29,869 nucleotides of DNA, taken from positions 1 through 29,869 of the IMG/VR virus record IMGVR_UViG_3300021425_000122; one strand, given 5' to 3'. Position numbers and translations under genes: made by a program. The first letter of the stretch is position 1; every line of letters starts with the position of its first letter. Positions 1 through 18,131 of this stretch are shown here, one piece after another. Under the pieces are notes generated by a model. The model had not been told where the DNA came from. It did no database searches and saw only the letters and a program-made list of their open reading frames with translations. The stretch is from a virus.

Positions 1-1365
1 AAATTAAATGTAAGAGTTTACTCTTCATTGAAACATGAAGCAAAAGGTTTCACTGCTGCGTCTGTTAAGCTTGAGCATGACGTTGCTAAACTGATAGACC
101 AGCAGCGTGAAAACGGTTTTATGTTAGACATAAAGGCAGCAACTCTACTAACTGCTCATCTTGAAGAAAAGATAGCAGCGATTATAGAAGAAGTACAAGA
201 AACATTTAAACCTAAAGTAACAACTCAAATACTTAAAGCTCAATTCACTAAATCTGGCGCACTGTCAAAACTGGCAAAAGATCAGGACGGTAAAGGGGTA
301 AGACTTAGCGAAGATGAGCTACTTAAATTAGAGCTAGATCCTAAAAAACCTATTAGGCGTGACACTTACACTGAGTTTAATCTTGGTTCACGGAAACAAA
401 TAGGCGAGTACTTAGTAGAGTTTGGTTGGAAGCCTAAGAAATATACGGCGACTGGTCAGGCTATTGTTGACGAAGGAACTCTTAGTAAAATAAAAAACAT
501 TCCTGAAGCGCATCTTATTGCTAAGTATCTTATGTTGCAGAAACGCTTAGCTCAGGTAAATAGCTGGTTAAAAGAAGTAGCCGACAATGGTAGGGTACAT
601 GGTTACGTAAATCCTAATGGGGCTGTGACAGGTCGTATGACTCACTCTCATCCTAATATGGCTCAGATCCCTAGTACTAATTCTCCTTATGGGAAAGAGT
701 GTAGAAGTTGTTGGACTGTTCCAGAAAACCATAAACTTGTTGGTATAGACGCTTCTGGGCTAGAGCTTAGAATGCTTGCACACTACTTGAATGATGAGGA
801 CTATACAAATGAAATCCTTAACGGAGACATTCATACCGCTAATCAAAAACTTGCGGGACTTGAATCAAGAAATCAGGCAAAGACTTTCATCTATGCCTTA
901 TTATACGGAGCAGGAGATGCAAAGCTTGGCTCAGTGGCTAACCGAGGTAGAGAAGAAGGTAAACGACTTAGACAATCATTCTTTGATAATCTCCCATCAT
1001 TTAAAACTCTTACAGGAAGAGTACAAAGAGAAGCAAAAAGCGGTTTTGTCCGAGGCTTAGATGGTAGAAAGCTAACTGTTCGCTCTGAACATGCAGCTCT
1101 CAACACTCTGTTACAAGGGGCAGGAGCTATTGTCATGAAAAAAGCTTTGGTGCTTCTTGATAAAGACCTTAAAGATAAAAACCTTAGAGCTAAGTTTGTT
1201 GCTAATGTTCACGATGAGTGGCAGATAGAATGTCATGAAGAAGATGCTGCTGCAACAGGTGAGGCTGGCATTAAAGCTATTATTAAAGCGGGCGCAGAGT
1301 TACAACTAAACTGTCCTCTTGATGGCGAATATAATGTAGGAGCTAACTGGGCGGAGACACACTAA
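1..1365 (+). CDS. DNA polymerase, family A (T7 gp5-like), 5' end cut off
   Basis: Template-directed DNA synthesis for phage replication. The frame is open to the first base, so the N-terminal part, including the 3'-5' exonuclease domain expected in T7 gp5 (704 residues), lies outside the window. The first possible start inside is TTG at 28, but I take it as internal. Numbering from that TTG, motif A is DASGLELRMLAHYL with metal-binding D241. The O-helix motif B is RNQAKTFIYALLYG, with R281, K285, Y289 and Y293. Motif C is VHDEWQIEC with H395-D396-E397. The spacing and the words NGDIHT and KTFIY are those of T7 DNA polymerase. Tyr289 occupies the position of E. coli Pol I Phe762 and T7 Tyr526, the residue that governs ddNTP discrimination. 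Its stop overlaps the next ATG (TAATG), so downstream translation is probably coupled. Family assignment is very secure; whether it uses thioredoxin as clamp cannot be judged here. Confidence 0.96.
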   Translation, partial: KLNVRVYSSLKHEAKGFTAASVKLEHDVAKLIDQQRENGFMLDIKAATLLTAHLEEKIAAIIEEVQETFKPKVTTQILKAQFTKSGALSKLAKDQDGKGVRLSEDELLKLELDPKKPIRRDTYTEFNLGSRKQIGEYLVEFGWKPKKYTATGQAIVDEGTLSKIKNIPEAHLIAKYLMLQKRLAQVNSWLKEVADNGRVHGYVNPNGAVTGRMTHSHPNMAQIPSTNSPYGKECRSCWTVPENHKLVGIDASGLELRMLAHYLNDEDYTNEILNGDIHTANQKLAGLESRNQAKTFIYALLYGAGDAKLGSVANRGREEGKRLRQSFFDNLPSFKTLTGRVQREAKSGFVRGLDGRKLTVRSEHAALNTLLQGAGAIVMKKALVLLDKDLKDKNLRAKFVANVHDEWQIECHEEDAAATGEAGIKAIIKAGAELQLNCPLDGEYNVGANWAETH

Positions 1366-4442: not shown

Positions 4443-4601
4443 ATGGATAGAAAAGATGAACGGCGTAGTCGCTTTGATCGTAAAAAGAAATACAAAAAGA
4501 TTAAAACGGCTTCGAGGTTTAAAGCTCAAAAACGTAAAGACAATCAACATAACCAAGCCGATATAAACGGCTATTTATTCTTCGAGGAGGAAGAAAAATA
4601 A
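4443..4601 (+). CDS. Small basic protein, 52 aa
   Basis: ATG at 4443 to TAA at 4601. It exactly fills the gap between the DUF3310 gene and the reductase gene, with a TAATG overlap at its end. The first 33 residues are strongly basic (RRSRFDRKKKYKKIKTASR and more Lys/Arg), while the C-terminus is acidic (FFEEEEK). Such a charge split could give nucleic-acid or partner binding. The stretch coding the acidic tail (GAGGAGGAAG) also serves as the Shine-Dalgarno of the reductase. No family recognised. Confidence 0.65.
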   Translation: MDRKDERRSRFDRKKKYKKIKTASRFKAQKRKDNQHNQADINGYLFFEEEEK

Positions 4602-6508
4602 TGGATTCATATCAACAATACATTCACAAATCCCGTTACGCACGGTGGCGGGAAGAAGATAATCGCCGTGAGACTTGGGAAGAAACAGTCCAAAGATACA
4701 TAGACTTTTGGGTAGATCGAGGTCAGATCAATAAAGCAACAGCTAAAACTTTGTACAATGCTATCTATAACCAAGATATAATGCCGTCTATGCGCTGCCT
4801 TATGACAGCAGGTAAGGCGCTAGACCGTGACAACATGGCAGGTTTTAATTGCTCATACATAGCTGTAGATCACGTAAGAGCTTTTGATGAGATTTTATAT
4901 GTACTAATGTGCGGCACTGGTGTAGGCTTTTCGGTTGAGCGTCAGTCCGTAAATAAACTACCAGAGGTGGGGGAGGAGTTCCATGAAACAGACACTACGA
5001 TCATTGTGCAGGACAGTAAAATTGGCTGGGCTAAAGCTTTCCGTGAGTTGGTCACTCTTTTGTATTCAGGTCAAGTTCCTAGTTGGGATGTTTCTAGGCT
5101 ACGTGCAAAAGGCGAAAGACTCAAAACTTTTGGTGGCCGTTCTTCTGGTTCAGATCCGCTTGTTTCTCTTTTTAGGTTTACTGTTTCTACTTTCAAACTT
5201 GCTGCCGGACGCAAGCTCACTTCACTAGAGGTACATGACATTGTATGTAAAATTGCTGAGATTGTTGTTGTTGGTGGTGTTAGGCGCTCTGCTCTTATCA
5301 GTCTTTCTAACCTTAGCGATGATAGAATGCGTCATGCTAAGTCTGGAAACTGGTGGGAGAGTGATTCGCAACGTGCGCTTGCAAATAACAGCGCTGTTTA
5401 CAATGAACGCCCTGACTTTGAAACATTCTTGGAAGAGTGGACGGCTTTGTATAAGTCAAAGGCGGGCGAGCGTGGCATCTTCTCTCGTACAGCTGCGAAA
5501 AAACAAGCGGCGAAAAACGGACGACGAGATATAGATTATGACTTTGGAACAAATCCTTGCAGCGAGATCATCTTGCGTTCAGCTCAAGTCTGTAACTTAT
5601 CAGAGATTGTAGTGCGGAGTACTGACACCTTTGAAGATTTAAAGCGTAAGGTTGAGTTAGCTACAATCGTAGGAACACTACAGTCATCTTTAACAGACTT
5701 CCGTTATGTACGTTCTGTTTGGAAAAAGAACACACAAGAAGAATGTTTGCTTGGTGTAAGCATGACAGGGATTATGGATCATCCTGTGATGTCTGGTAGA
5801 GATACCAAGACAACAGGCTTCGATCATCCCGACGCATCTAACCTCCCTGATATACTAGAGAAGCTTAAAGAAGTCGCCGTAGTCACCAATGAAAAGTGGG
5901 CTAAGAAGTTATGTATCAACCAATCTACTGCTATTACTTGTGTGAAGCCAAGCGGTACAGTATCACAGTTAGTCGATAGTGCTTCTGGCATTCACGCTAG
6001 GTTCTCTGACTACTACATTCGTACAGCACGTAGTGATGGTAAAGACCCTATCTCGGCCTTCCTTAAAGACGCTGGAGTTCCTTGGGAGAAAGATGTAATG
6101 AACGAGGAGAACTATGTGTTCTCGTTCGCTATTAAAGCTCCAGATGGTTCAACGACTGTAGACTCTCTCAATGTAAAGCAACAGCTTGATCTGTGGGAAA
6201 CCTACCAGAACCATTGGTGTGAACATAAACCTAGTGTTACAATATATTACTCTGATGCTGAGTTTTTATCAGCAGGGCAGTGGTTATGGGATAGACTAGA
6301 TAGTTGTTCTGGCATTAGCTTCCTACCTCGGACTGACCATGTATATCAGCAAGCCCCATACACAGCGGTCACTAAGGAACAGTATGACGAAGCTTTGGCT
6401 AAGATGCCTAAAGAAATTAATTGGGATCTTTTAAGCACCTTTGAACTAGAAGATACAACAACAGGTACTCAAGAACTGGCGTGTACAGCGAATAATTGTG
6501 AGATTTAA
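4601..6508 (+). CDS. nrdJ: Ribonucleoside-triphosphate reductase, adenosylcobalamin-dependent (class II)
   Basis: Monomeric class II ribonucleotide reductase, reducing ribonucleotides to deoxyribonucleotides with adenosylcobalamin as radical source, in the host cytoplasm. Visible features: C84 in GFNCSYIAVD, the redox pair partner of C331; NPCSE at 318-322 with thiyl cysteine C320 and E322; barrel motifs CGTGVGFSVE, VVGGVRRSALISLSN and KPSGTVSQLVDSASGIHARF; and the C-terminal cysteine pair C628-x4-C633 that re-reduces the active site. These correspond to C119, C408, C419 and C731/C736 of the Lactobacillus leichmannii enzyme. At 635 residues it is shorter than that 739-residue enzyme; part of the loss is upstream of C84 and part lies between C84 and C320. 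It is strongly translated judging by GAGGAGG upstream. It implies a host that makes or imports B12. Confidence 0.95.
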   Translation: MDSYQQYIHKSRYARWREEDNRRETWEETVQRYIDFWVDRGQINKATAKTLYNAIYNQDIMPSMRCLMTAGKALDRDNMAGFNCSYIAVDHVRAFDEILYVLMCGTGVGFSVERQSVNKLPEVGEEFHETDTTIIVQDSKIGWAKAFRELVTLLYSGQVPSWDVSRLRAKGERLKTFGGRSSGSDPLVSLFRFTVSTFKLAAGRKLTSLEVHDIVCKIAEIVVVGGVRRSALISLSNLSDDRMRHAKSGNWWESDSQRALANNSAVYNERPDFETFLEEWTALYKSKAGERGIFSRTAAKKQAAKNGRRDIDYDFGTNPCSEIILRSAQVCNLSEIVVRSTDTFEDLKRKVELATIVGTLQSSLTDFRYVRSVWKKNTQEECLLGVSMTGIMDHPVMSGRDTKTTGFDHPDASNLPDILEKLKEVAVVTNEKWAKKLCINQSTAITCVKPSGTVSQLVDSASGIHARFSDYYIRTARSDGKDPISAFLKDAGVPWEKDVMNEENYVFSFAIKAPDGSTTVDSLNVKQQLDLWETYQNHWCEHKPSVTIYYSDAEFLSAGQWLWDRLDSCSGISFLPRTDHVYQQAPYTAVTKEQYDEALAKMPKEINWDLLSTFELEDTTTGTQELACTANNCEI

Positions 6509-8738: not shown

Positions 8739-9143
8739 TTATTTATCTCTTTGAACCTTTTTAGTTTTCTCTACAGTCCTTAAAGTTCCTAAGCCTAACA
8801 TACCCATTAGCACAGGCATCATTTCAGCAGTCTCTATCATTGGAACATTAATTTCTGAGCCTGCTAAAGCTAAACCGAAATTAGCCATAGGGATAACTAT
8901 AAAATTTCCTGCCATTCCTAAGACACATACCCACCCAACAGCGGGCCTCCATCCAGCAACAAATAAATTCTTGTGGGCGGCTTCAGTTTTGTTTACTTCT
9001 AGCTGAGCTTGAGCTAGCTCTTGTCCGTGCCTCTCAGCCATCGTAGCTATTTGATGAGCCAACATAGCCTTCTGGTCTTTGTCTTGTATTACTTTATCTA
9101 GAAGTCCCGTCACAGGGCCAATAAGTGAGTTTAGTATATTCAT
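8739..9143 (-). CDS. Holin, GTA-type three-TM family
   Basis: Inner-membrane pore protein that times lysis and releases or activates the endolysin. The N-terminal 57 residues are a charged helix (LLDKVIQDKDQKAMLAHQIA through EVNKTEAAHK). Then LFVAGWRPAVGWVCVLGMAG marks the signature of the three-TM GTA holin family, followed by membrane segments around residues 60-95 and 104-122. The C-terminal tail is basic (RTVEKTKKVQRDK), as in most holins. It lies two bases from the M15 endolysin, forming a lysis cassette. A separate holin-like peptide lies at 21142-21321, so which one triggers lysis is uncertain. Confidence 0.85.
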   Translation of the reverse strand: MNILNSLIGPVTGLLDKVIQDKDQKAMLAHQIATMAERHGQELAQAQLEVNKTEAAHKNLFVAGWRPAVGWVCVLGMAGNFIVIPMANFGLALAGSEINVPMIETAEMMPVLMGMLGLGTLRTVEKTKKVQRDK

Positions 9144-9144
9144 A

Positions 9145-9498
9145 TTAATAGCACCACATAACAGGTTTATCGGTTTCTCGAATGTCTACATGCACAAAGC
9201 TACGGGCAACTCCTATACCGTTGAAGCCTAGCTCTATTGCTTTTTCTACAATCTTACGGCGCTCAAGTCCATTAGAGACTTTAATATCTGCGGCAATTCC
9301 TTGAGCATGAGTACCGGCTTTAGCTTTAGTTTTTTCAAGGCTATGATAAGAGCTACGGTATCCTGAAGTAATAGTGAATGGAAAATCACAAGCTTCCCTT
9401 AGCTTATCAAGCCTTTCAATAAACTCATCTTTCATTTTATTTTCACCTGTCTCTTGACAGTCAAACTCTTTTATGTTAAAATACTTAAAGTAAGCCAT
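9145..9498 (-). CDS. Endolysin, peptidase M15 family
   Basis: Predicted zinc D-Ala-D-Ala-type carboxy- or endopeptidase that cuts peptide cross-links of peptidoglycan. Zn ligands are visible: H64 and D71 in GTHAQGIAADI, and H103 in FVHVDIR, with D105 beside it. ITSGYRSSYH ahead of it is the usual substrate-side loop of this family. At 117 residues it is a compact single-domain enzyme with no signal peptide, so it needs a holin to reach its target. It is followed two bases later by the holin gene. A structural role in the virion is less likely given this pairing. Confidence 0.88.
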   Translation of the reverse strand: MAYFKYFNIKEFDCQETGENKMKDEFIERLDKLREACDFPFTITSGYRSSYHSLEKTKAKAGTHAQGIAADIKVSNGLERRKIVEKAIELGFNGIGVARSFVHVDIRETDKPVMWCY

Positions 9499-9501
9499 CC
9501 A

Positions 9502-12500
9502 CTAAACCCCTCTTAGTTTTCTTAAAGCGTTACGAACTTTGCCACCTTCTTTTACTATAGGCTCTTTTAGTTTCCGTATAGCCTGTGTAATCTTTTGAGT
9601 AGGTTCAAAATTAATCTTCTCAGAATTTGATAGCTCTGTAGGTACAATTAATTTTTGATCTACGTAAATTTTATCTGGATCTTTTATATCATTAGTGGCT
9701 ATTAAAGCAGGCACTGTAGTATTATTTCTTTTAGCAATAGAACTTAAAGTATCACCCCTTTTAATTACATACCCACCTTCGTCATAACCACCTCTACGTC
9801 TACGGCTTTCTTGCGGAGACATATAAACAGCTTCACGTTTAGAAATTAAATCATCTATTACTTTTTCAGCTGCTTTAAAATCAGGAGCTTCAATTTTATA
9901 TCCTAGTTCGTTGTTATGTATATCCATATCTTTCCCAACTCTGTCAGGAAATGGTAAATACTCTCTAAGATTAATAGCTTTTAAAGCTAAGTTAGGGTTC
10001 TTGGATTTTTTAGAGATGAAACCTAAAGCTAAGTGAGCCGCTGCATCACCCATTCCATCATAAGCTGTGCTTTCAGGATAACGCTTACGTTGGCTCTTAG
10101 CCCATTCTAAAGCTTCTTTATCTATACCTATCTTCTCTGCTACAAACCCACCCATATCATACATGTCCCGTGGATCAGCAGGATCAAAGCTTACAGCGTT
10201 TACGTTTTTAAACTGCTCTGGGTCAAAAAGAATGTATGAGTATGGTTCTTCGCTAATTAAAGAAGGTTCCGCTTCATTTTTATATTGGATAGAATCAAAG
10301 CCTAACTCTTTAAAGAACTCACTAGCTTTTTTATTAAAGGCTGCTCTTAATATTAAATCTTTAATATGGTTCTCTAATTCATCTACGGAAGCCGTAGAAT
10401 ACTCTTTGTTTTCTATTTCCATAGCTTCGGCAGTTAGCTCATAAAAAATGTTATCTTCTTCTGAAGTGAGTCGTCGTCCTAAATTGTCTTCTAGTATATC
10501 TACTAAGTCTACAGCTCCCGCAGTAAAAAAGTGTTCGGCTGACCAAGTAGGGGCATCCTCTTCTATAACTAAAGGGTTCTTAATATTAATGTACCCTTTT
10601 ACCATAGATAAGGGGTCTTCTGCAACTTCAATTCCAGAGTCTCCAAAAGCTTCATCCATACGGAGCATTTTATAATTATATTCATCTTCAAATATTTCAT
10701 GGAAGTCTTCACGAGTAAACGCACCTCTGCTAAATACCTCGTCTAAATATTTATCGGAGCCTAATACTGTACGGGCTAAAATAGAATTAGCTTGTCCTTC
10801 TGTACCTACATGAGTCCCTATTTCTCTAGGCATTGCAAAAGAAATGTCTCTGTCTAGATTTACATAACTAGATATACCTCTAAAGATAGGGGTTTTAACT
10901 TTAGAGTCTTTTAAGAAAGTCTCTAAGCTCTCAACCCTATCTCCTACAAGATCAGGAATATCTTTTTCTCTTGCACTAGGCATAGCTTTAGAAAGAACCT
11001 CAACAGCTTCTTTAACTTCTTCGTCCCCCTCAGAGATTATTTTATAGATGTGCTGCTTAGAGCCTTCAAATAGACCATTTATAGTTACCCCTTCAACTCT
11101 GTTTCCTTTATTATCTAAAAGATCATTAGCTAAAAATTCAGCAAGAGGCTCATACTTATCAAAGTCTTTCGGAATATCTTTATAACCATCACGAGTAACT
11201 AGATCATACGTTTCTTTTAAAGGTCTAATGTGACTATCTAGGATATAAGTTATATCATCTTGAGGATCAATTTCTTCTCCTATCTCATTTGCTAAGTTAT
11301 AGTTTTCTATACTCTCTTCACTATAGCCTCTGAGTTTTTGGTATCTCAAACCTAACTCAGTTTCTTCGGCAATTTTTTGTTCTTCAGGAGTTTTTTCTCT
11401 ATTAAGCTCGTCAAAAAGTTTTTGTTGTTCGGGCGACTTTACGCTGTTTTTTTCTTCGAGTATTGCTTGAATACGAGCTTCAAAATATTCACTAATAGAT
11501 AGCTGTTCATCTTCATCTAGGAACATTGATTCGTCAGGTATATCTGGATCATAGTTATCGTTATAAAGATCACCGCCTTCTAACATAGGTGACTCTACTT
11601 CAAACTCAATTTCATCTCCTATTTCTTCTACTGTTTTCTGGTCAAATATTTTGTCAGTGTATGTATCTATAATTTCTGATAGCCTATTAGTCAAAGGCCT
11701 AGTAGCCTTAGTTACTAATGTACCTAGAGCAAAACCTAAACGTAAAGTCTTACCTTCATCAAGCTCATCCATAAAAGCAGAGCCAGCCTGTTTATTATAA
11801 GGAAGCCCTGTAACTTTATCTTTACGCTCATCAGGTTCAAAAGATGCACGGGGAACATTGACTTCACCGCCTTTATTAAAACGTACAGGAGAATAAGGAA
11901 ACTCAGGAATGAGCTTATCTTTCATTTTTTTGTCTATTTCTCTAAGGTTTCGTGTGTAAGCTTTATCTACGTCTTTACCTGCCACAAGGCCCATTGCGCC
12001 ATAAAGAGGTACTTTCTTGCCTACAGTGGGTATGACACCTTGTTGCGCTAGTGAAACCACATCTCCAGAAATGGGGCCAGTACCTACTGTTAAATATGGG
12101 ATAAGGCTATTAGAATACATGGCTGATTTTCTAGCTCTCTGTAGAGTATCTAACATAGCGCCGTTACCGCCCCAACGGGCTACAGCTTGACCATAAATTT
12201 CAGCAGTGCTTTTATTCTCTTCGTTCCTTCCGTGGCTTCTTACATAGTTTAACCACCTTGATGTTTCAGTCATAATTAAACCAGCCGTAGCTATTTTAGC
12301 TCCGTTTCTAACTGGAGATTTAATTAGATCTTTAGCAGCTCCTTTTAATACTGTATTTGTAAAAGCAGCGGGATACCCTAAAAGCTGAAAAAGTATTGAA
12401 GTCTGTGGGTCACTGTGCAACATAGGCTTTAAATTAGACATAGCTGTAGGCTGCATGATAACACCGTTAGTGTATCTAGCGGCCCCACTTAAAAGCTCCT

Positions 12501-15171
12501 CATAAAAAGGATCGTCTTTTCTTGAGCCGTTCTTAACCCATTGAATACCTTTTTCTATATCTATATTCAGTTCGTTTAAACGTCCTTCATAAACATCCGT
12601 TTTATGTGTACGGGCTTGAGAGCCTCTAGAAGCTAGATCTTTCAAGTGTCTTTCAATCATATTTTTTCCAGTAGCATACGAAGATGCCTGAACAAAATGA
12701 GTCCACTGATCTAGCATGTTCAACCGGAAAAACTTATTACTTACTTTTTGCATTCCTTCGTGTACAAGATCGTCGCCCGCTAAACGGTTCCCTATCTGAT
12801 CGGCCCCTTGCTCCATAGCAATACCAAACTTTTTCATTTCTCTCCAAGCTTCGTTAGCTGTTAAGTTATGCTTAGAAATAAGATTAGAGTGTAAGTCTTT
12901 GGTTATTGTTTTATGTCCTAAGTTTAAAGCGGTGCCAAATCCTTTTACAGAATCAACCACGCCCGCCTTACTAATATTAATAAAAACCTCTGTTAAGCTG
13001 CTTAATGTCGCCAAAGGAAGATACGCAAGACGATTCATGAGGGAGTAAGCATCTACACCTGTCTGAACTTTATCGCCAAAACGGTTTAAACCTTCGCTTG
13101 TTGTAAGCTGATAAAGTTTTAAAATATCTTTCTTTTCTGAAGCTGTCATTTTTTTACCAGCTTTTGCCATTTCTTTTTCAATAGGCGTAATCCATTTATT
13201 TATAAATTCTTGTTGAGATCTCACGCCCAAGACTTTTGATTTTGCAAGAGATTTACCAGCTTGGAAGTTGTACGAAGAAACAACTTTAAGTAGATCTTGT
13301 TCAAAGAACTCAGCAAACTTTGATTCATCCTCAATATCTATTAGCTTACGTTTTGCCGCAAAGAAAGAACCTCCTGTTCCTCCAGAAAGCTGGTTCTTAA
13401 TATCTAACATTCCTTCGAGAATATCATCAGCCTCTCTTTTATTGCTGGCTTGTCCTGTTTCAACTAAAAGACTTTTAAATAATTCTTGGTCTTGCTCAAT
13501 AGCTTTTCTATTCCACATACGAGGAATATAATTTTCAACTTCTTTATCTATAATTTTAGCGTCAGCTAACTGGCTACCTATGCTTTTAAAAAGGTTTCTT
13601 ATTTCCTTAGCCGCTGTATTAATACGCATGTCACTAGTACTTTCGCCACGTATTGCTCTATTAAGAGTTGCTTGGACAGCATCAGAAAGCTCACCTTTAA
13701 CTGCGTTTAGCGCTAAGGGCTGGATAGCCTTTAAGTATCTTTCATTAAAATCACCAGAGTATCTTTGAGCAACCTCAGAAAAATCTAAACCTACTTTTTC
13801 TTTTTGATTTGAAGTGCTTGTACCAAACTCATGAGCTAGTCTTTTCTGTAGGCTATCAGCCGTATTAGAGTATTTAGTAAGAGGAGTTAAGATACCTGCT
13901 GCCTTACCAAAAAATACTTTAGAAGTTAATCCTGTAGCCACCTGCATCATTTTAAAAGCTACTTTATTTTTTATTTCTTCGCCAGTAGCTCCTGATTTTA
14001 CAGCGTCTAAAATAATCTCAGTTACTTCTTCTTTAGTAGCTTCGCCGCCTCCAACATCATCAGCAAACTTGTTGATTACTTCTTCGTCTACTTCAGGCGT
14101 AATATCTATAGGTTCTCTACCTTCTGTCCCACCAAGCCTCCGTGCTTCTTCTATAATATCGTTTACGGACTTAGGAATATAGTCACCTTCGATGGCTTCT
14201 TCAACAACTTCTAAAGCTTGTGACTCGACATAGGCTGGAGTGTCATCTACATCAATTTCTTTATTAAGTCTACTTCCGAGTACTTTGCCTATGCCCCAAG
14301 TAGCTCCTGCACCTATAAGAGTGCCTGCGGCTGTAGCTATGCCTGTTTGAGTAAGATCATATTTTTGTTGCTCATCTACAGCAATATTAAGTTTCTGCGC
14401 TGATAAATCATCTGCCCCCGAAAATACTCCACCGTAAACGGCCCCCGCCTTTATGGGATTAGCTGCTAAAGCTGTTGCGCCTTTTGATAAAGCAGAATGT
14501 AACAAAGCTCTAGTAGTTGCTTGTGCTGCAAGCGGTACAGTTCCTTTTGAAAACAGTCCGCCTAAAACAAAAGGTATAGTTTCGTAGTTTGCTACTAAAT
14601 CAGTACCATAGTCTTTAACGGCTGTCATCCATTCGCCGAAACCTTCAAGCTCTGCATCTTCAAAACGATCTTGAAGAAAAACAAAAGCTTCTTTAACTTC
14701 GTCAGGAGCGTCTTTTATCATTGATGCTAATTTAATTTTAGAAGAAATACGGAGATTTACATCACGCAAAGTTTCAACCACGCCATCGTCTGCGTCAAAA
14801 GCGGGGTCTAAAAGAGCACCCATTGCAGTTTCATTTTGAGAAAACCAATCTGTAAAAACCTCATATTTTTTTATTACACGGGGATCGTTTTCAAAGTCCG
14901 TTACCGACAAAGGGAGATCTCTAGGCTGTTCCCAACTTACTAAGTTTTCAAAACCTTCATCGTCTTCAATAATTTTATAATCAGAAACGTTTAAGCCTGC
15001 TTCTGCTTTTGCGTAGTAGTCTTCATACCTACCTATAACACTAATTGGTTTTTTTACAGGCACAGCAGGCTTTTCAAAACGATCAAAGATACCGCTATAC
15101 TTTTGAGTCTCTTGAGGTTTTTCAGTCTCTTCAAAACGATCAAAGATACCGCCGTATTTTAATTCACTCAT
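9502..15171 (-). CDS. Giant internal virion/ejection protein with ADP-ribosyltransferase-like and LysM domains
   Basis: 1889 residues, far longer than T7 gp16 (1318). Residues 1-35 carry two copies of a KY(G/S)GIFDRFE motif. Residues about 100-1090 form a long helical core with an Ala/Gly-rich, membrane-active-looking stretch at 198-300. By length and position this is probably a gp16-type ejection protein, but no transglycosylase motif is visible. Residues 1091-1140 hold an RFNKGGEVNVPRASFEPDER block and about 1180-1420 an acidic linker. Residues about 1425-1665 look like an ADP-ribosyltransferase of the polyvalent-protein type: PIFRGISS (R1431), GTHVGTEGQAN (H1454), GYINIKNPLVIEEDAPTWS, GFDSIQYKNEAE and SYILFDPEQFKNV. 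Residues 1800-1844 are a clear LysM domain (YVIKRGDTLSSIAKRNNTT). The tail is basic. It is likely packed in the head and ejected into the cell; which steps each domain serves is inference. Confidence 0.9.
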   Translation of the reverse strand: MSELKYGGIFDRFEETEKPQETQKYSGIFDRFEKPAVPVKKPISVIGRYEDYYAKAEAGLNVSDYKIIEDDEGFENLVSWEQPRDLPLSVTDFENDPRVIKKYEVFTDWFSQNETAMGALLDPAFDADDGVVETLRDVNLRISSKIKLASMIKDAPDEVKEAFVFLQDRFEDAELEGFGEWMTAVKDYGTDLVANYETIPFVLGGLFSKGTVPLAAQATTRALLHSALSKGATALAANPIKAGAVYGGVFSGADDLSAQKLNIAVDEQQKYDLTQTGIATAAGTLIGAGATWGIGKVLGSRLNKEIDVDDTPAYVESQALEVVEEAIEGDYIPKSVNDIIEEARRLGGTEGREPIDITPEVDEEVINKFADDVGGGEATKEEVTEIILDAVKSGATGEEIKNKVAFKMMQVATGLTSKVFFGKAAGILTPLTKYSNTADSLQKRLAHEFGTSTSNQKEKVGLDFSEVAQRYSGDFNERYLKAIQPLALNAVKGELSDAVQATLNRAIRGESTSDMRINTAAKEIRNLFKSIGSQLADAKIIDKEVENYIPRMWNRKAIEQDQELFKSLLVETGQASNKREADDILEGMLDIKNQLSGGTGGSFFAAKRKLIDIEDESKFAEFFEQDLLKVVSSYNFQAGKSLAKSKVLGVRSQQEFINKWITPIEKEMAKAGKKMTASEKKDILKLYQLTTSEGLNRFGDKVQTGVDAYSLMNRLAYLPLATLSSLTEVFINISKAGVVDSVKGFGTALNLGHKTITKDLHSNLISKHNLTANEAWREMKKFGIAMEQGADQIGNRLAGDDLVHEGMQKVSNKFFRLNMLDQWTHFVQASSYATGKNMIERHLKDLASRGSQARTHKTDVYEGRLNELNIDIEKGIQWVKNGSRKDDPFYEELLSGAARYTNGVIMQPTAMSNLKPMLHSDPQTSILFQLLGYPAAFTNTVLKGAAKDLIKSPVRNGAKIATAGLIMTETSRWLNYVRSHGRNEENKSTAEIYGQAVARWGGNGAMLDTLQRARKSAMYSNSLIPYLTVGTGPISGDVVSLAQQGVIPTVGKKVPLYGAMGLVAGKDVDKAYTRNLREIDKKMKDKLIPEFPYSPVRFNKGGEVNVPRASFEPDERKDKVTGLPYNKQAGSAFMDELDEGKTLRLGFALGTLVTKATRPLTNRLSEIIDTYTDKIFDQKTVEEIGDEIEFEVESPMLEGGDLYNDNYDPDIPDESMFLDEDEQLSISEYFEARIQAILEEKNSVKSPEQQKLFDELNREKTPEEQKIAEETELGLRYQKLRGYSEESIENYNLANEIGEEIDPQDDITYILDSHIRPLKETYDLVTRDGYKDIPKDFDKYEPLAEFLANDLLDNKGNRVEGVTINGLFEGSKQHIYKIISEGDEEVKEAVEVLSKAMPSAREKDIPDLVGDRVESLETFLKDSKVKTPIFRGISSYVNLDRDISFAMPREIGTHVGTEGQANSILARTVLGSDKYLDEVFSRGAFTREDFHEIFEDEYNYKMLRMDEAFGDSGIEVAEDPLSMVKGYINIKNPLVIEEDAPTWSAEHFFTAGAVDLVDILEDNLGRRLTSEEDNIFYELTAEAMEIENKEYSTASVDELENHIKDLILRAAFNKKASEFFKELGFDSIQYKNEAEPSLISEEPYSYILFDPEQFKNVNAVSFDPADPRDMYDMGGFVAEKIGIDKEALEWAKSQRKRYPESTAYDGMGDAAAHLALGFISKKSKNPNLALKAINLREYLPFPDRVGKDMDIHNNELGYKIEAPDFKAAEKVIDDLISKREAVYMSPQESRRRRGGYDEGGYVIKRGDTLSSIAKRNNTTVPALIATNDIKDPDKIYVDQKLIVPTELSNSEKINFEPTQKITQAIRKLKEPIVKEGGKVRNALRKLRGV
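15071..15160 (-). repeat. Tandem copy of a short motif at the N-terminus of the giant protein
   Basis: Two near-identical stretches of about 30 bases, 57 bases apart, encode KYGGIFDRFE (residues 5-14) and KYSGIFDRFE (24-33). The shared DNA is TCAAAACGATCAAAGATACC on the plus strand. The DNA identity is higher than protein conservation demands, which suggests a recent duplication or selection for the exact motif. Confidence 0.8.
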
Positions 15172-15179
15172 AAAATATC

Positions 15180-17495
15180 CTATTTAGTTTTTGGGTTCAA
15201 TGTAGCTCTTTTGTCTTTAGCTTCTTGTATTTTTTTATTTAAGCGTTCTTCTGTGAAAAGGTCAGAAACATTAGACAGCCCTGTGTGATAACCAAACTGC
15301 TTGGCTGCTGTTCCTACAAAGTCTTTAGCGTTCGTCCCTAACTGTTTAGGTGCTCTAGCTAAACCGCCTATAATGTAATCAGTTAAGTATTGCTTCTGTT
15401 CCCTTTGTGCAACAGCCTCTTGTACTCTGCTTAAAATATCTTCTGAAGTAACATCAACACCTAAAGAAGAAAGACCTGCTAATATAACTTCAGCTTTTGT
15501 GTCACCTAGTTGATTAACGCCTGATAGACTGCTAGCGATGCCTTCGATAGCTACATCTACTAATTCACCCTTACTTGGATTAAGACCGGCTTTAACCTTA
15601 AGAAGGTTACTAACTGTTTTAACTTGTTTCTCTGGGACTTCTTTAATTAACTTTAAAGTTTTTTCTGGAGTCCATGTTAGAGTCGTTGTAGTCGGCTGTT
15701 CCGCTTCCTTTGCAGGCACAGTTGCATCGGGTTCAATTTTTTCGGGCCTTACAAAATGTTTATCATACTCTAATAAAAATTCAGGGTCATCTTTATTCTC
15801 CAAGAAAATTTCTTTTTCCTCTTCAGTAGGAATAATTTTCCCGTTTAAAGGAGGCTTATTTACAGGAGCTTGTTGGCTCGTGGGAGCACTAAGCAGTTCT
15901 TCTCGTAAATTAAGGTGTTGAAAACGTGGATCGTCTACAAGTCCTTTTTCTGTTACGTTACCTTCGCTGTCAGTAACCCCAAGAACATGGATTCTTTGAG
16001 AAAGAGTTTGAAAGCCGCTTTCTTTTACTGAGTTTAGTAATGATTTTTTAACCTCTAATAATTTTTTATTTGGGATTCCTGTCCTTAATCCTTTTTGTTC
16101 CGCTAGCGCAAGACCCAAGTACATTGCTAAGCTGTCATGAACTTTATTAGGCATAATGTCTTTTTTAAAGTCTGCTTCATCTGTTACAAAAGAGGAGAAA
16201 CTCAACATGCCCGCAGGTTTTAATATATTTTCATACCTAAGTTTATGAGCTTCTACAGCTACTTGATAAGCTACTGAAGATGGCATATTATATTTTTTTA
16301 CTAAGTTAGTACGGCTTCTAAGAATACGCCCATTGATTACTTTTCGAGCTGTCTTATTTATTTGTTGTTGTTCTTTTGGAGTTCCTCCGGTATTATTGCC
16401 CACCATTAAAGCAACAGCCCCGTCAAAAACTTTCTTTCCTTCTTTATCTGTATTTGTTGCTACTTGCGTTTGAATAATTTCAGACTGTTCGTCACTTAGT
16501 TGAGAAGCGCTCATGTCTGTTAGATCTGTTGGATTAGGATCAATAGAACTAGATATTGCTTTTTTAGTTAGGGCATCCACCAAAACACCAGTATCTATAC
16601 CGTTAGCTAATACAGGAACCACTGACCTTTTAATAGTAGTCACTTTTCCTGTAATATCTGTAGTGGGAACGTCAATGGAAACAACTTTTCCATAGGTTGT
16701 GTCAGGGCCGCTTAAATCTGTAAGTGCTATTCCACTATCTTCCAAGACTTCCAGTATGGTAGCTGCGGTAAACCCATCCCTAGATTCTTTATAAAGAGAA
16801 AAGTATGCTTCTTTTTGTTCAGCTTTATCTAAAAAACCATTTAAACGTAAGCCTGAAGTTACAGGATCTTCGCCTCCTTCAGAAAAAATCCCTTTAATTT
16901 TACCATACGCATACTTAGTAAAGTTAGTGGGAGCTGCTTCATTTGTTTTTTCCATATAAGTTTTATAGTTGATAGATCCAGCAGCTAGCTCCTGTGCCGC
17001 ACTGTGCTGTTTTTCGTGTGCTTCTTGTAACACCCTACCTAAATGCCCAGCCGCTAATTTTTTTATTTGGTCTAGTTGGCTTGTACTATATTTAGCAGGG
17101 CTGAACTCAGGATTCATAGCAAATATTTTTTCTACTTGAGGCATAGCTTGCGTGGCAAAAAAGGACGGGGAATCTAAACCAGAGTCAACTAAGTCTTTTT
17201 CTCTTTTAAATGCGTTTGTTTGCATAGTAGTAGCATTTTGTAATGTTAAAGAATTGTTTAAGTGTTCTGAGTTATTTAAAAACTCTTCGGTTTTATTTTT
17301 CAGGAAGTCATTACCCATCTCAGAGACTACTCCTGAAACAGCTTTTAAGCCTACACCGATTAAAGCTTGTTTACGTGCGTCTTTCGTTGCACGTTTATCT
17401 GCTTTTCTTTGCTCTCGTAAATATTGTTGGTACTGATCGTCTTTTCTTTTACGGACATCTGCGAGTAAAGACGTACCAAATTCTTCTATAGACAT
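15180..17495 (-). CDS. Internal virion protein, 771 aa (T7 gp15-like by position)
   Basis: Large, helix-rich protein directly before the giant ejection protein, in the slot of T7 gp15 (747 residues), which forms part of the internal core and the ejection tube. The N-terminus (MSIEEFGTSLLADVRKRKDD) runs into a strongly basic coiled-coil-like stretch (REQRKADKRATKDARKQA, about residues 27-44). The middle is a mix of helix and Thr/Ser loops (for example TYGKVVSIDVPTTDITGKVT). A Pro/Thr/Glu-rich linker lies near 545-610 and the C-terminus is Lys-rich (RLNKKIQEAKDKRATLNPKT). I see no enzymatic motif. A good AAAGGA site precedes the ATG. The role is inferred from length and gene order, not from recognised motifs. 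Confidence 0.75.
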   Translation of the reverse strand: MSIEEFGTSLLADVRKRKDDQYQQYLREQRKADKRATKDARKQALIGVGLKAVSGVVSEMGNDFLKNKTEEFLNNSEHLNNSLTLQNATTMQTNAFKREKDLVDSGLDSPSFFATQAMPQVEKIFAMNPEFSPAKYSTSQLDQIKKLAAGHLGRVLQEAHEKQHSAAQELAAGSINYKTYMEKTNEAAPTNFTKYAYGKIKGIFSEGGEDPVTSGLRLNGFLDKAEQKEAYFSLYKESRDGFTAATILEVLEDSGIALTDLSGPDTTYGKVVSIDVPTTDITGKVTTIKRSVVPVLANGIDTGVLVDALTKKAISSSIDPNPTDLTDMSASQLSDEQSEIIQTQVATNTDKEGKKVFDGAVALMVGNNTGGTPKEQQQINKTARKVINGRILRSRTNLVKKYNMPSSVAYQVAVEAHKLRYENILKPAGMLSFSSFVTDEADFKKDIMPNKVHDSLAMYLGLALAEQKGLRTGIPNKKLLEVKKSLLNSVKESGFQTLSQRIHVLGVTDSEGNVTEKGLVDDPRFQHLNLREELLSAPTSQQAPVNKPPLNGKIIPTEEEKEIFLENKDDPEFLLEYDKHFVRPEKIEPDATVPAKEAEQPTTTTLTWTPEKTLKLIKEVPEKQVKTVSNLLKVKAGLNPSKGELVDVAIEGIASSLSGVNQLGDTKAEVILAGLSSLGVDVTSEDILSRVQEAVAQREQKQYLTDYIIGGLARAPKQLGTNAKDFVGTAAKQFGYHTGLSNVSDLFTEERLNKKIQEAKDKRATLNPKTK

Positions 17496-17507: not shown

Positions 17508-18131
17508 TTATTGCTCTGGTCGGGCCATTAAACTTTCTTGATTATCTTTTGGTTCAGGGGTGGTTTCCTCAACACTTTCTTCTATTTTTATTTCCGATAG
17601 CTTTTCTAGATCTTCCTGCATTTTTGCAGTTAAAACACCTTCTGGAACTTTACTAGTTTCAGCTACATTTTTCATGTCCTGTATCTGTTCTTGCGTAAAC
17701 TCTATACCTACTTTTTCTTCGTTTTCGATTTCGTCTTCTGCTTCCTCATGATAAACAACAAAAGGAATATCTTGTTTTTCCGCTAAAGCTATTAACATAT
17801 AAGCAGTAGGCTCAAGAAGCATAGTCATTAAATCAGGGTTCCATTTTCCAGCATTGAAACCCATAAACAATATTCCACGGGTCAGATCCATTACAGGAAC
17901 ACCGTTGTTTAAAAGTTTCATTGCTTGAACATAGATTTCTGGACGTATTAAACTTTCCCAAACATGTTCAAGCGCTGGGTGTAGGGCCACAAACTCAGGA
18001 GCCTGTTCAAAAGGTAATGGAGCTTCTGGGTTATTAGTCAACGACTGCCCCGCAATAGGGCCATCAAAACTTGTTGTAGCTCCACCTAGATTTTCACTAG
18101 GGGCCATATTCATCATTTCTTCATTTGCCAT
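17508..18131 (-). CDS. Conserved-looking virion-associated protein, 207 aa, unknown role
   Basis: Residues about 55-120 form a compact, hydrophobic block: HPALEHVWESLIRPEIYVQA, then LLNNGVPVMDLTRGILFMGF, then KWNPDLMTMLLEPTAYMLIA. I recall similar blocks in structural-region proteins of other marine phages, where the function is unknown. The ends are low-complexity: the N-terminus is Met/Asn-rich (MANEEMMNMAPSENLG) and the last 70 residues are acidic (EESVEETTPEPKD). It lies between two ejection-type proteins, so a small core or assembly factor is plausible. It is not obviously membrane-spanning despite its hydrophobic segments. Confidence 0.75.
   Translation of the reverse strand: MANEEMMNMAPSENLGGATTSFDGPIAGQSLTNNPEAPLPFEQAPEFVALHPALEHVWESLIRPEIYVQAMKLLNNGVPVMDLTRGILFMGFNAGKWNPDLMTMLLEPTAYMLIALAEKQDIPFVVYHEEAEDEIENEEKVGIEFTQEQIQDMKNVAETSKVPEGVLTAKMQEDLEKLSEIKIEESVEETTPEPKDNQESLMARPEQ

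What the first reader, a model, noticed from the sequence alone, without database searches (positions are those of the whole stretch)
10177..10899. ADP-ribosyltransferase-like domain inside a giant ejection-type virion protein
Seen: residues about 1425-1665 contain PIFRGISS, GTHVGTEGQAN, GYINIKNPL, GFDSIQYKNEAE and SYILFDPEQFKNV, in that order. This order is one I associate with ADP-ribosyltransferase domains in polyvalent phage proteins (ART-PolyVal type). Known: T4 packages and injects Alt, which ADP-ribosylates host RNA polymerase. Inference: this podovirus carries a virion-borne modifying enzyme fused to its gp16-type ejection protein, so host targets would be modified as soon as DNA entry begins. 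The fusion would link dose and timing to ejection. This is the strongest candidate for an undescribed system in the window.
Basis: partly seen in the sequence, partly recalled or inferred. Interest (0 to 1): 0.8.

Follow-up and report, generated by a model that had tools for sequence, protein, structure and literature searches.

The report
ADP-ribosyltransferase-like module on ejection protein
A marine short-tailed phage carries, on the end of the giant protein it probably ejects into its host with its DNA, a domain of the ADP-ribosyltransferase kind (enzymes that use NAD to tag other molecules), and nearly all of its relatives keep it, which suggests a built-in first strike on the host cell that still has to be proven.

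Summary
All five motifs lie where stated in one 1889-residue ORF, and they are the conserved core of a family found in 73 related viral loci. The ART interpretation is supported at fold and family level. Pfam ART-PolyVal is the recurrent hit (14 of 37 members, best 6.8e-7), though sub-threshold in the window. A confident AlphaFold model matches predicted phage ART-PolyVal proteins (E down to 1.5e-7). A tandem repeat in another phage protein bridges to a canonical ART-PolyVal domain. No solved ART structure matches significantly. The active site is not the published H-Y-D: it reads R1431-H1454, with Ser at the usual Glu position and invariant N1632/E1635 nearby, so catalysis is plausible but unproven. 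The carrier is LUZ24-gp50-like, the third of three ejection-type genes; LUZ24 gp50 stops where the extension begins. The ART is present in 15 of 16 readable loci recruited by the ejection core alone, fused in most, a separate downstream gene in some, under purifying selection. Virion-delivered ARTs in polyvalent proteins are already published, so this is a new variant (new carrier, altered triad), not a new kind. Packaging, NAD use and target are untested.

The parts
11881..14910 (-). Ejection/virion core of the giant protein (aa 88-1097), LUZ24 gp50-like
   Evidence: PHROG 7348 1018 bits, phrog_6958 virion structural protein 2.4e-23; tblastn to LUZ24 gp50 and KPP25 structural protein; LUZ24 gp50 blastp 1.7e-11
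10159..11274 (-). ART-like module with its helical N-terminal part (aa 1300-1671)
   Evidence: Family alignments A1/A2; AlphaFold model pLDDT 86, pTM 0.86
10159..10890 (-). ART-like core (aa 1428-1671): strands carrying FRG, GTHVG, GYINIK, GFDSIQY and SYILF
   Evidence: Pfam ART-PolyVal over aa 1522-1658, E 1.1e-4 on the core alone, 23.4 bits against cut-off 31.2; core model pLDDT 88.5, pTM 0.85
10879..10881 (-). R1431, first active-site position (His in H-Y-D/H-Y-E ARTs, Arg in R-S-E ARTs)
   Evidence: 33/38 R, 5/38 N; aligns with His of HGT in the bridging repeats of L091
10822..10824 (-). E1450, invariant Glu next to the second strand
   Evidence: 38/38
10810..10812 (-). H1454, second active-site position (GTHV aligned with GIHL/AIFL of L091)
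   Evidence: 37/38; alignment with L091 repeats
10267..10278 (-). N1632-x-x-E1635, invariant acid in the loop between the last two long strands
   Evidence: 38/38 each
10237..10239 (-). S1645, at the place of the catalytic Glu (PARP1 E988) by motif spacing
   Evidence: 38/38 Ser; the PARP1 comparison is from memory
10213..10215 (-). Q1653 of FDPEQFK, invariant
   Evidence: 38/38; equivalent Q in FNPNQIKS of crAss-like phage cr130_1
9859..10119 (-). DUF6973-like domain (aa 1685-1771) with conserved DAAAH...MDIHNN
   Evidence: Pfam 6.4e-4, below cut-off; motif also in L020, L021/L022, L024
9640..9771 (-). LysM domain (aa 1801-1844)
   Evidence: Pfam 2.1e-14, above cut-off
15180..17495 (-). 771-aa ORF directly upstream, putative second ejection protein (T7 gp15-like by size and position only)
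   Evidence: Gene order; no family match
17508..18131 (-). 207-aa ORF, putative first ejection protein (T7 gp14-like by size and position only)
   Evidence: Gene order; no family match

Best explanation
The region is a divergent ART-PolyVal-type ADP-ribosyltransferase domain carried as a C-terminal module on a LUZ24-gp50-like ejection protein of a marine podovirus. Most likely mechanism: several copies are stored in the capsid, expelled ahead of or with the DNA, and the part following the core emerges in the cytoplasm. There the domain binds NAD with R1431 and H1454, with E1635 and/or S1645 supplying or assisting the third catalytic position, and mono-ADP-ribosylates a host macromolecule in the first minutes, as T4 Alt does. 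Shown: the domain, its homology to ART-PolyVal at profile and predicted-structure level, its fusion or adjacency to the ejection gene, and its conservation. Inferred: packaging, copy number, cytoplasmic exposure, NAD use and target.
For: Pfam ART-PolyVal in 14 of 37 members, best 6.8e-7, next family in 2 of 37, and in 7 of 9 close relatives. Foldseek viral: 18 hits at E<=1e-3, nearly all probability 1.00, including named ART-PolyVal proteins. L091 has two tandem repeats sharing one upstream segment: one resembles this family (hhalign 98%, 2e-13), the other is the stretch that matches PF18760 at 5.3e-6; both align with the window motif by motif. Core similar to phage particle proteins. LUZ24 gene order, and gp50 ending where the extension starts. 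ART present in 15 of 16 readable core-recruited loci. dN/dS 0.10-0.33. In T7 the gp16 C-terminal part is thought to project into the cytoplasm (PMC8954989). Virion-packaged ARTs are a known strategy (PMC5512222, PMC9503650).
Against: The window's Pfam score is below the curated cut-off (23.4 against 31.2 bits). No significant PDB match; weak PARP hits cover only about 32-60 residues. hhalign against a six-sequence canonical set gives 9.8%. The catalytic Glu position is Ser in all 38 members. R1431 is Asn in five. LysM and, in relatives, lysozyme domains on the same chain point to the periplasm, where NAD is scarce (general knowledge). No transmembrane segment was seen by hydropathy. No proteomics.
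Confidence: 0.58

Rival explanations
1. ART fold retained without transferase activity: the domain binds NAD, ADP-ribose or a host or phage partner and serves assembly, ejection or anchoring.
For: The Glu position is invariantly Ser and the H-Y-D signature is lost. The domain co-travels with structural and peptidoglycan-related modules. Near-universal presence in the clade fits a structural role as well.
Against: Invariant polar residues (E1450, N1632, E1635, S1645, Q1653, and near-invariant H1454) cluster on the ART active-site strands, while the helical part before the FRG motif has few invariant positions. The ART also exists as a separate gene. It evolves faster than the core.
Confidence: 0.25
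2. An active ART-superfamily enzyme that does not modify host protein: an RNA- or DNA-modifying or NAD-consuming enzyme (KptA/TRPT1-like, DarT-like or NADase), for example to counter NAD-based immunity or repair RNA.
For: A His at the second strand position, instead of Tyr or Ser, recalls the KptA/TRPT1 class (from memory). Nucleic-acid-modifying ARTs exist (PMC8053099).
Against: No sequence match to KptA or DarT families in Pfam, NCBIfam or PDB searches. The best relatives are polyvalent ARTs.
Confidence: 0.12
3. Not an ART: an unrelated alpha/beta module with chance motif resemblance.
For: No significant match to any solved ART; the single-sequence Pfam score is below cut-off.
Against: Recurrent Pfam hits, named ART-PolyVal structure hits, the L091 tandem bridge, and motif order and spacing.
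Confidence: 0.05

Closest known systems
ART-PolyVal domains in polyvalent proteins (Pfam PF18760; Tox-ART-HYD2 clade; prototype Roseovarius Plymouth podovirus 1 vRNAP; PMC5512222)
   Same: Fold-level match, shared G[FY]D[SG]I..N...YI.F.P.Q.K ending, location in a giant multidomain virion-type protein
   Different: R (or N) instead of H in strand 1, H instead of Y in strand 2, Ser at the Glu position; carrier is a LUZ24-gp50-like ejection protein, not an N4 RNA polymerase; score below the Pfam cut-off
T4 Alt (Alt/VIP2 clade, R-S-E)
   Same: Proposed logic: virion-borne ART acting at the start of infection; Arg at the first position
   Different: No sequence match; second residue His, not Ser; Glu not at the usual place; fused to an ejection protein rather than a free internal protein
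LUZ24 gp50 (virion structural protein, Bruynoghevirus)
   Same: Homologous core and the same place in the gene order, next to a convergent DNA polymerase/endonuclease VII/exonuclease module
   Different: 1055 aa; ends where the ART-bearing extension of the window protein begins
PHROG 7348 ('endolysin', 2564 columns)
   Same: Whole-protein family: covers the core and the ART region; all 37 ART members match it
   Different: Annotated only as endolysin (apparently for lysozyme modules of some members); the ART is not annotated
T7 gp16 / P22 gp16 ejection proteins
   Same: Third and largest of three consecutive ORFs with T7-like sizes (207, 771, 1889 aa)
   Different: Direct sequence homology not tested; no transglycosylase domain found in the window protein; a large C-terminal effector-like extension

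Membership tests
ART superfamily | ART fold (split sheet of two three-stranded units) | tested here: met
   AlphaFold strands at the expected motifs; Foldseek to phage ART-PolyVal models, E down to 1.5e-7. Not met against solved structures, so support is by predicted structures only
ART superfamily | Catalytic triad facing one NAD pocket | not testable with these tools
   Model coordinates are not returned, so residue geometry could not be measured
ART-PolyVal (PF18760) | Score above the curated cut-off of 31.2 bits | tested here: not met
   23.4 bits for the window core, E 1.1e-4; no hit above cut-off in the window record
ART-PolyVal (PF18760) | Significant similarity to the family profile across the group | tested here: met
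   14 of 37 members, best 6.8e-7; 7 of 9 close relatives
ART-PolyVal (PF18760) | H in strand 1 | tested here: not met
   R in 33/38, N in 5/38; H is present in the bridge L091
ART-PolyVal (PF18760) | Y in strand 2 | tested here: not met
   H in 37/38
ART-PolyVal (PF18760) | D in strand 5 | tested here: inconclusive
   No conserved D at the strand start; invariant E1635 in the preceding loop lines up with D of NNVYDD/NNVIDG
Alt/VIP2 R-S-E clade | R-S-E triad | tested here: not met
   R present, second residue H, Glu position Ser
Polyvalent proteins | Two or more domains of disparate activity in one polypeptide | tested here: met
   ART-like + DUF6973-like + LysM; Pesticin-type lysozyme in relatives L018, L033
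Polyvalent proteins | Packaged and injected with DNA | not testable with these tools
   Inferred from the virion-protein core only; needs proteomics
LUZ24 gp50-like virion protein | Homologous core and conserved gene position | tested here: met
   blastp 1.7e-11 over aa 628-942 and same convergent layout
T7 gp16-type ejection protein | Direct homology to T7 or P22 gp16 | not tested
   Only position, ORF sizes and LUZ24 gp50 similarity were examined

The most novel reading that the evidence does not exclude
A separate ART family with an R-H-(E/S) active site, built in as a near-constant part of the DNA ejection machine of a marine podovirus group, so that each ejection event delivers a stoichiometric dose of an NAD-using enzyme, possibly with a nucleic-acid target.
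Probability: 0.25. Interest if true: 0.72.

Novelty: new variant of a known kind. Interest (0 to 1): 0.5.

Why it matters
If active, this would extend the T4 Alt strategy to short-tailed marine phages and tie enzyme dose to genome ejection. A 2022 survey found ARTs in only about 3% of podoviruses (PMC9503650), so a podovirus group in which nearly every member carries one on the ejection protein would be unexpected. The altered triad offers a test of how ARTs work without the canonical Glu. Relatives with the ART as a separate gene, and LUZ24 gp50 without it, give natural controls.

Tried and rejected
tblastn of the ART region against 50,697 phage records: no match for the window, L048 or L077, so no isolated phage relative was found. 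Genome-contig scans with A1 and with the cr130_1 ART found no relatives, so a larger canonical ART-PolyVal set could not be collected. PDB sequence searches gave only noise. PDB fold searches with the full and core models gave nothing significant. hhalign with Roseovarius-type ARTs plus cr130_1 was weak, 9.8%. An alignment including the L091 repeat was misaligned because of its insert and was replaced by the repeat alignment. A hydropathy scan of the window protein found no 19-residue segment above 1.5, so classic transmembrane helices were not seen. NCBIfam gave only LysM-type matches and noise. No literature was found that describes an ART fused to a LUZ24/P22/T7-type ejection protein; the paper library is partial.

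Full report
What is there. The window is a 29,869-base virus record. The finding lies in one ORF, 9502-15171 on the minus strand, 1889 aa. All five motifs are present in the stated order (residues 1428, 1452, 1526, 1624 and 1645).

Setting. The ORF is the last and largest of three consecutive ORFs of 207, 771 and 1889 aa. It is followed by a peptidase M15 gene and a holin, then by a convergent module with DNA polymerase, endonuclease VII and a Cas4-type exonuclease. LUZ24 has a similar layout, with gp50 in this place. The core of the window protein (aa 88-1097) is PHROG 7348 (1018 bits) and resembles a virion structural PHROG and LUZ24 gp50. LUZ24 gp50 is 1055 aa. From the alignment (window 628-942 to gp50 597-903) its end falls near window residue 1094, where the extension starts. 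The three sizes resemble T7 gp14, gp15 and gp16 (from memory); direct T7 homology was not tested.

Relatives. The core as query brought 18 loci. Of the 16 where the downstream part can be read, 15 carry the ART-like domain. One (L011) does not, and two (L008, L019) are cut off; the contig of L019 has the domain further on, as L030. Several of these loci look like near copies of one another, so they represent fewer distinct phages, roughly eleven. The ART alignment as query brought 73 loci, most with the domain C-terminal to the same core. In L034, L044, L040 and L075 the domain is in the next gene, behind a stop and an AAGGATTA..ATG start. In L023 and L071 it is in an overlapping ORF. The module can therefore be carried separately.

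Is it an ART? Four lines say yes. (1) Pfam ART-PolyVal is the only recurrent family: 14 of 37 members, best E 6.8e-7. The window itself scores 23.4 bits, below the curated 31.2. (2) AlphaFold gave confident models (pLDDT 86 and 88.5, pTM 0.86 and 0.85). Foldseek against predicted viral structures gave 18 matches at E<=1e-3, with named ART-PolyVal proteins among them; some unnamed top hits may be close relatives and not independent. (3) A 3888-aa open frame in L091 carries two tandem repeats with the same upstream segment. One has FHGT...GIHLGDKEQA...GFDGIKYLNEYEG like this family. The other has YHGT...AIFLASD...YDSVQINNVYDD...IYIVFDSNNIKSA and is the stretch that PF18760 matches at 5.3e-6; the first matches A3 by hhalign at 98%. 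(4) The conserved polar residues fall on the ART strands. Against: no solved ART matches significantly. PARP4, tankyrase and PARP3 appear among the hits of the core model, but at E 3-9 and over about 32-60 columns. A six-sequence canonical set gave only 9.8% by hhalign.

Active site. Published ART-PolyVal domains have H in strand 1, Y in strand 2 and D in strand 5 (PMC5512222). Here strand 1 has R1431 (33/38; N in 5), strand 2 has H1454 (37/38), and the usual Glu position is S1645 (38/38) by spacing to the conserved Gln (the PARP1 spacing is from memory). N1632 and E1635, in the loop before that strand, are invariant. E1635 is the best candidate for the acid, but geometry could not be measured. 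The second-strand His recalls KptA/TRPT1 (from memory), which act on RNA; this is a lead, not a test. Membership in ART-PolyVal by its defining triad and cut-off is not met; membership in the ART superfamily is supported.

Selection. dN/dS for the ART region is 0.10-0.33 in close pairs, against 0.03-0.16 for the core: purifying selection, somewhat faster than the core in most pairs, as expected for a host-facing domain. The rates do not prove catalysis.

Mechanism. For T7 the C-terminal part of gp16 is thought to project into the cytoplasm (PMC8954989). A C-terminal ART would then reach NAD at the start of infection. The LysM domain here and lysozyme domains in relatives act on peptidoglycan, so the chain may work in more than one compartment, or be cut between modules. 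The recurring [FY]xxGGx[VILA] motif at the junctions (101 seen against 32 expected in shuffled sequences) would suit linkers or processing sites; this is speculative.

Comparison. Injected polyvalent proteins with ARTs, and T4 Alt, are established (PMC5512222, PMC9503650). What differs is the carrier (a LUZ24-gp50-like ejection protein), the near-constant presence in the group, and the altered triad. No paper describing this combination was found in the partial library.

Verdict. It is a new variant of a known kind. My estimates: ART fold about 0.9, active NAD-using enzyme about 0.6-0.7, delivered Alt-like effector on host macromolecules 0.58.

Noticed in passing
window aa 1098, 1671, 1796 of ORF 9502-15171 (-); same in 28 relatives: A [FY]xxGGx[VILA] motif recurs at module junctions and at C-termini (FAEGGLV), 101 occurrences against 32 expected in shuffles; possible linkers or processing sites.
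   Followed up: partly
9859-10119 (-), aa 1685-1771: DUF6973-like domain with DAAAH...MDIHNN, shared by L020, L021/L022 and L024; unknown activity, possibly a His-rich hydrolase site.
   Followed up: partly
L018, L033 ejection-protein C-termini: Pesticin-type lysozyme domains replace or accompany other modules, so the C-terminus is a modular array.
   Followed up: partly
L020, L021, L024, L033, L035, L064, L071: A further conserved domain with an EE.QSD motif in several relatives, without a Pfam match where scanned.
   Followed up: no
window 8739-9498 (-): Lysis cassette: M15 peptidase and GTA-type holin directly downstream.
   Followed up: yes
window aa 1098-1671 against the last 45 residues: The linker and ART region are strongly acidic (net -27, -14 and -27 by segment) while the last 45 residues are basic, +6.
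   Followed up: no
L071 5897-5922: Overlap of the core ORF end and the ART ORF start near a TTTAAAAAGGG run: gene fission, frameshifting or sequencing error not distinguished.
   Followed up: no
window 4601-6508 (+): Ribonucleotide reductase gene, with a B12-dependent-type insertion-domain match.
   Followed up: no
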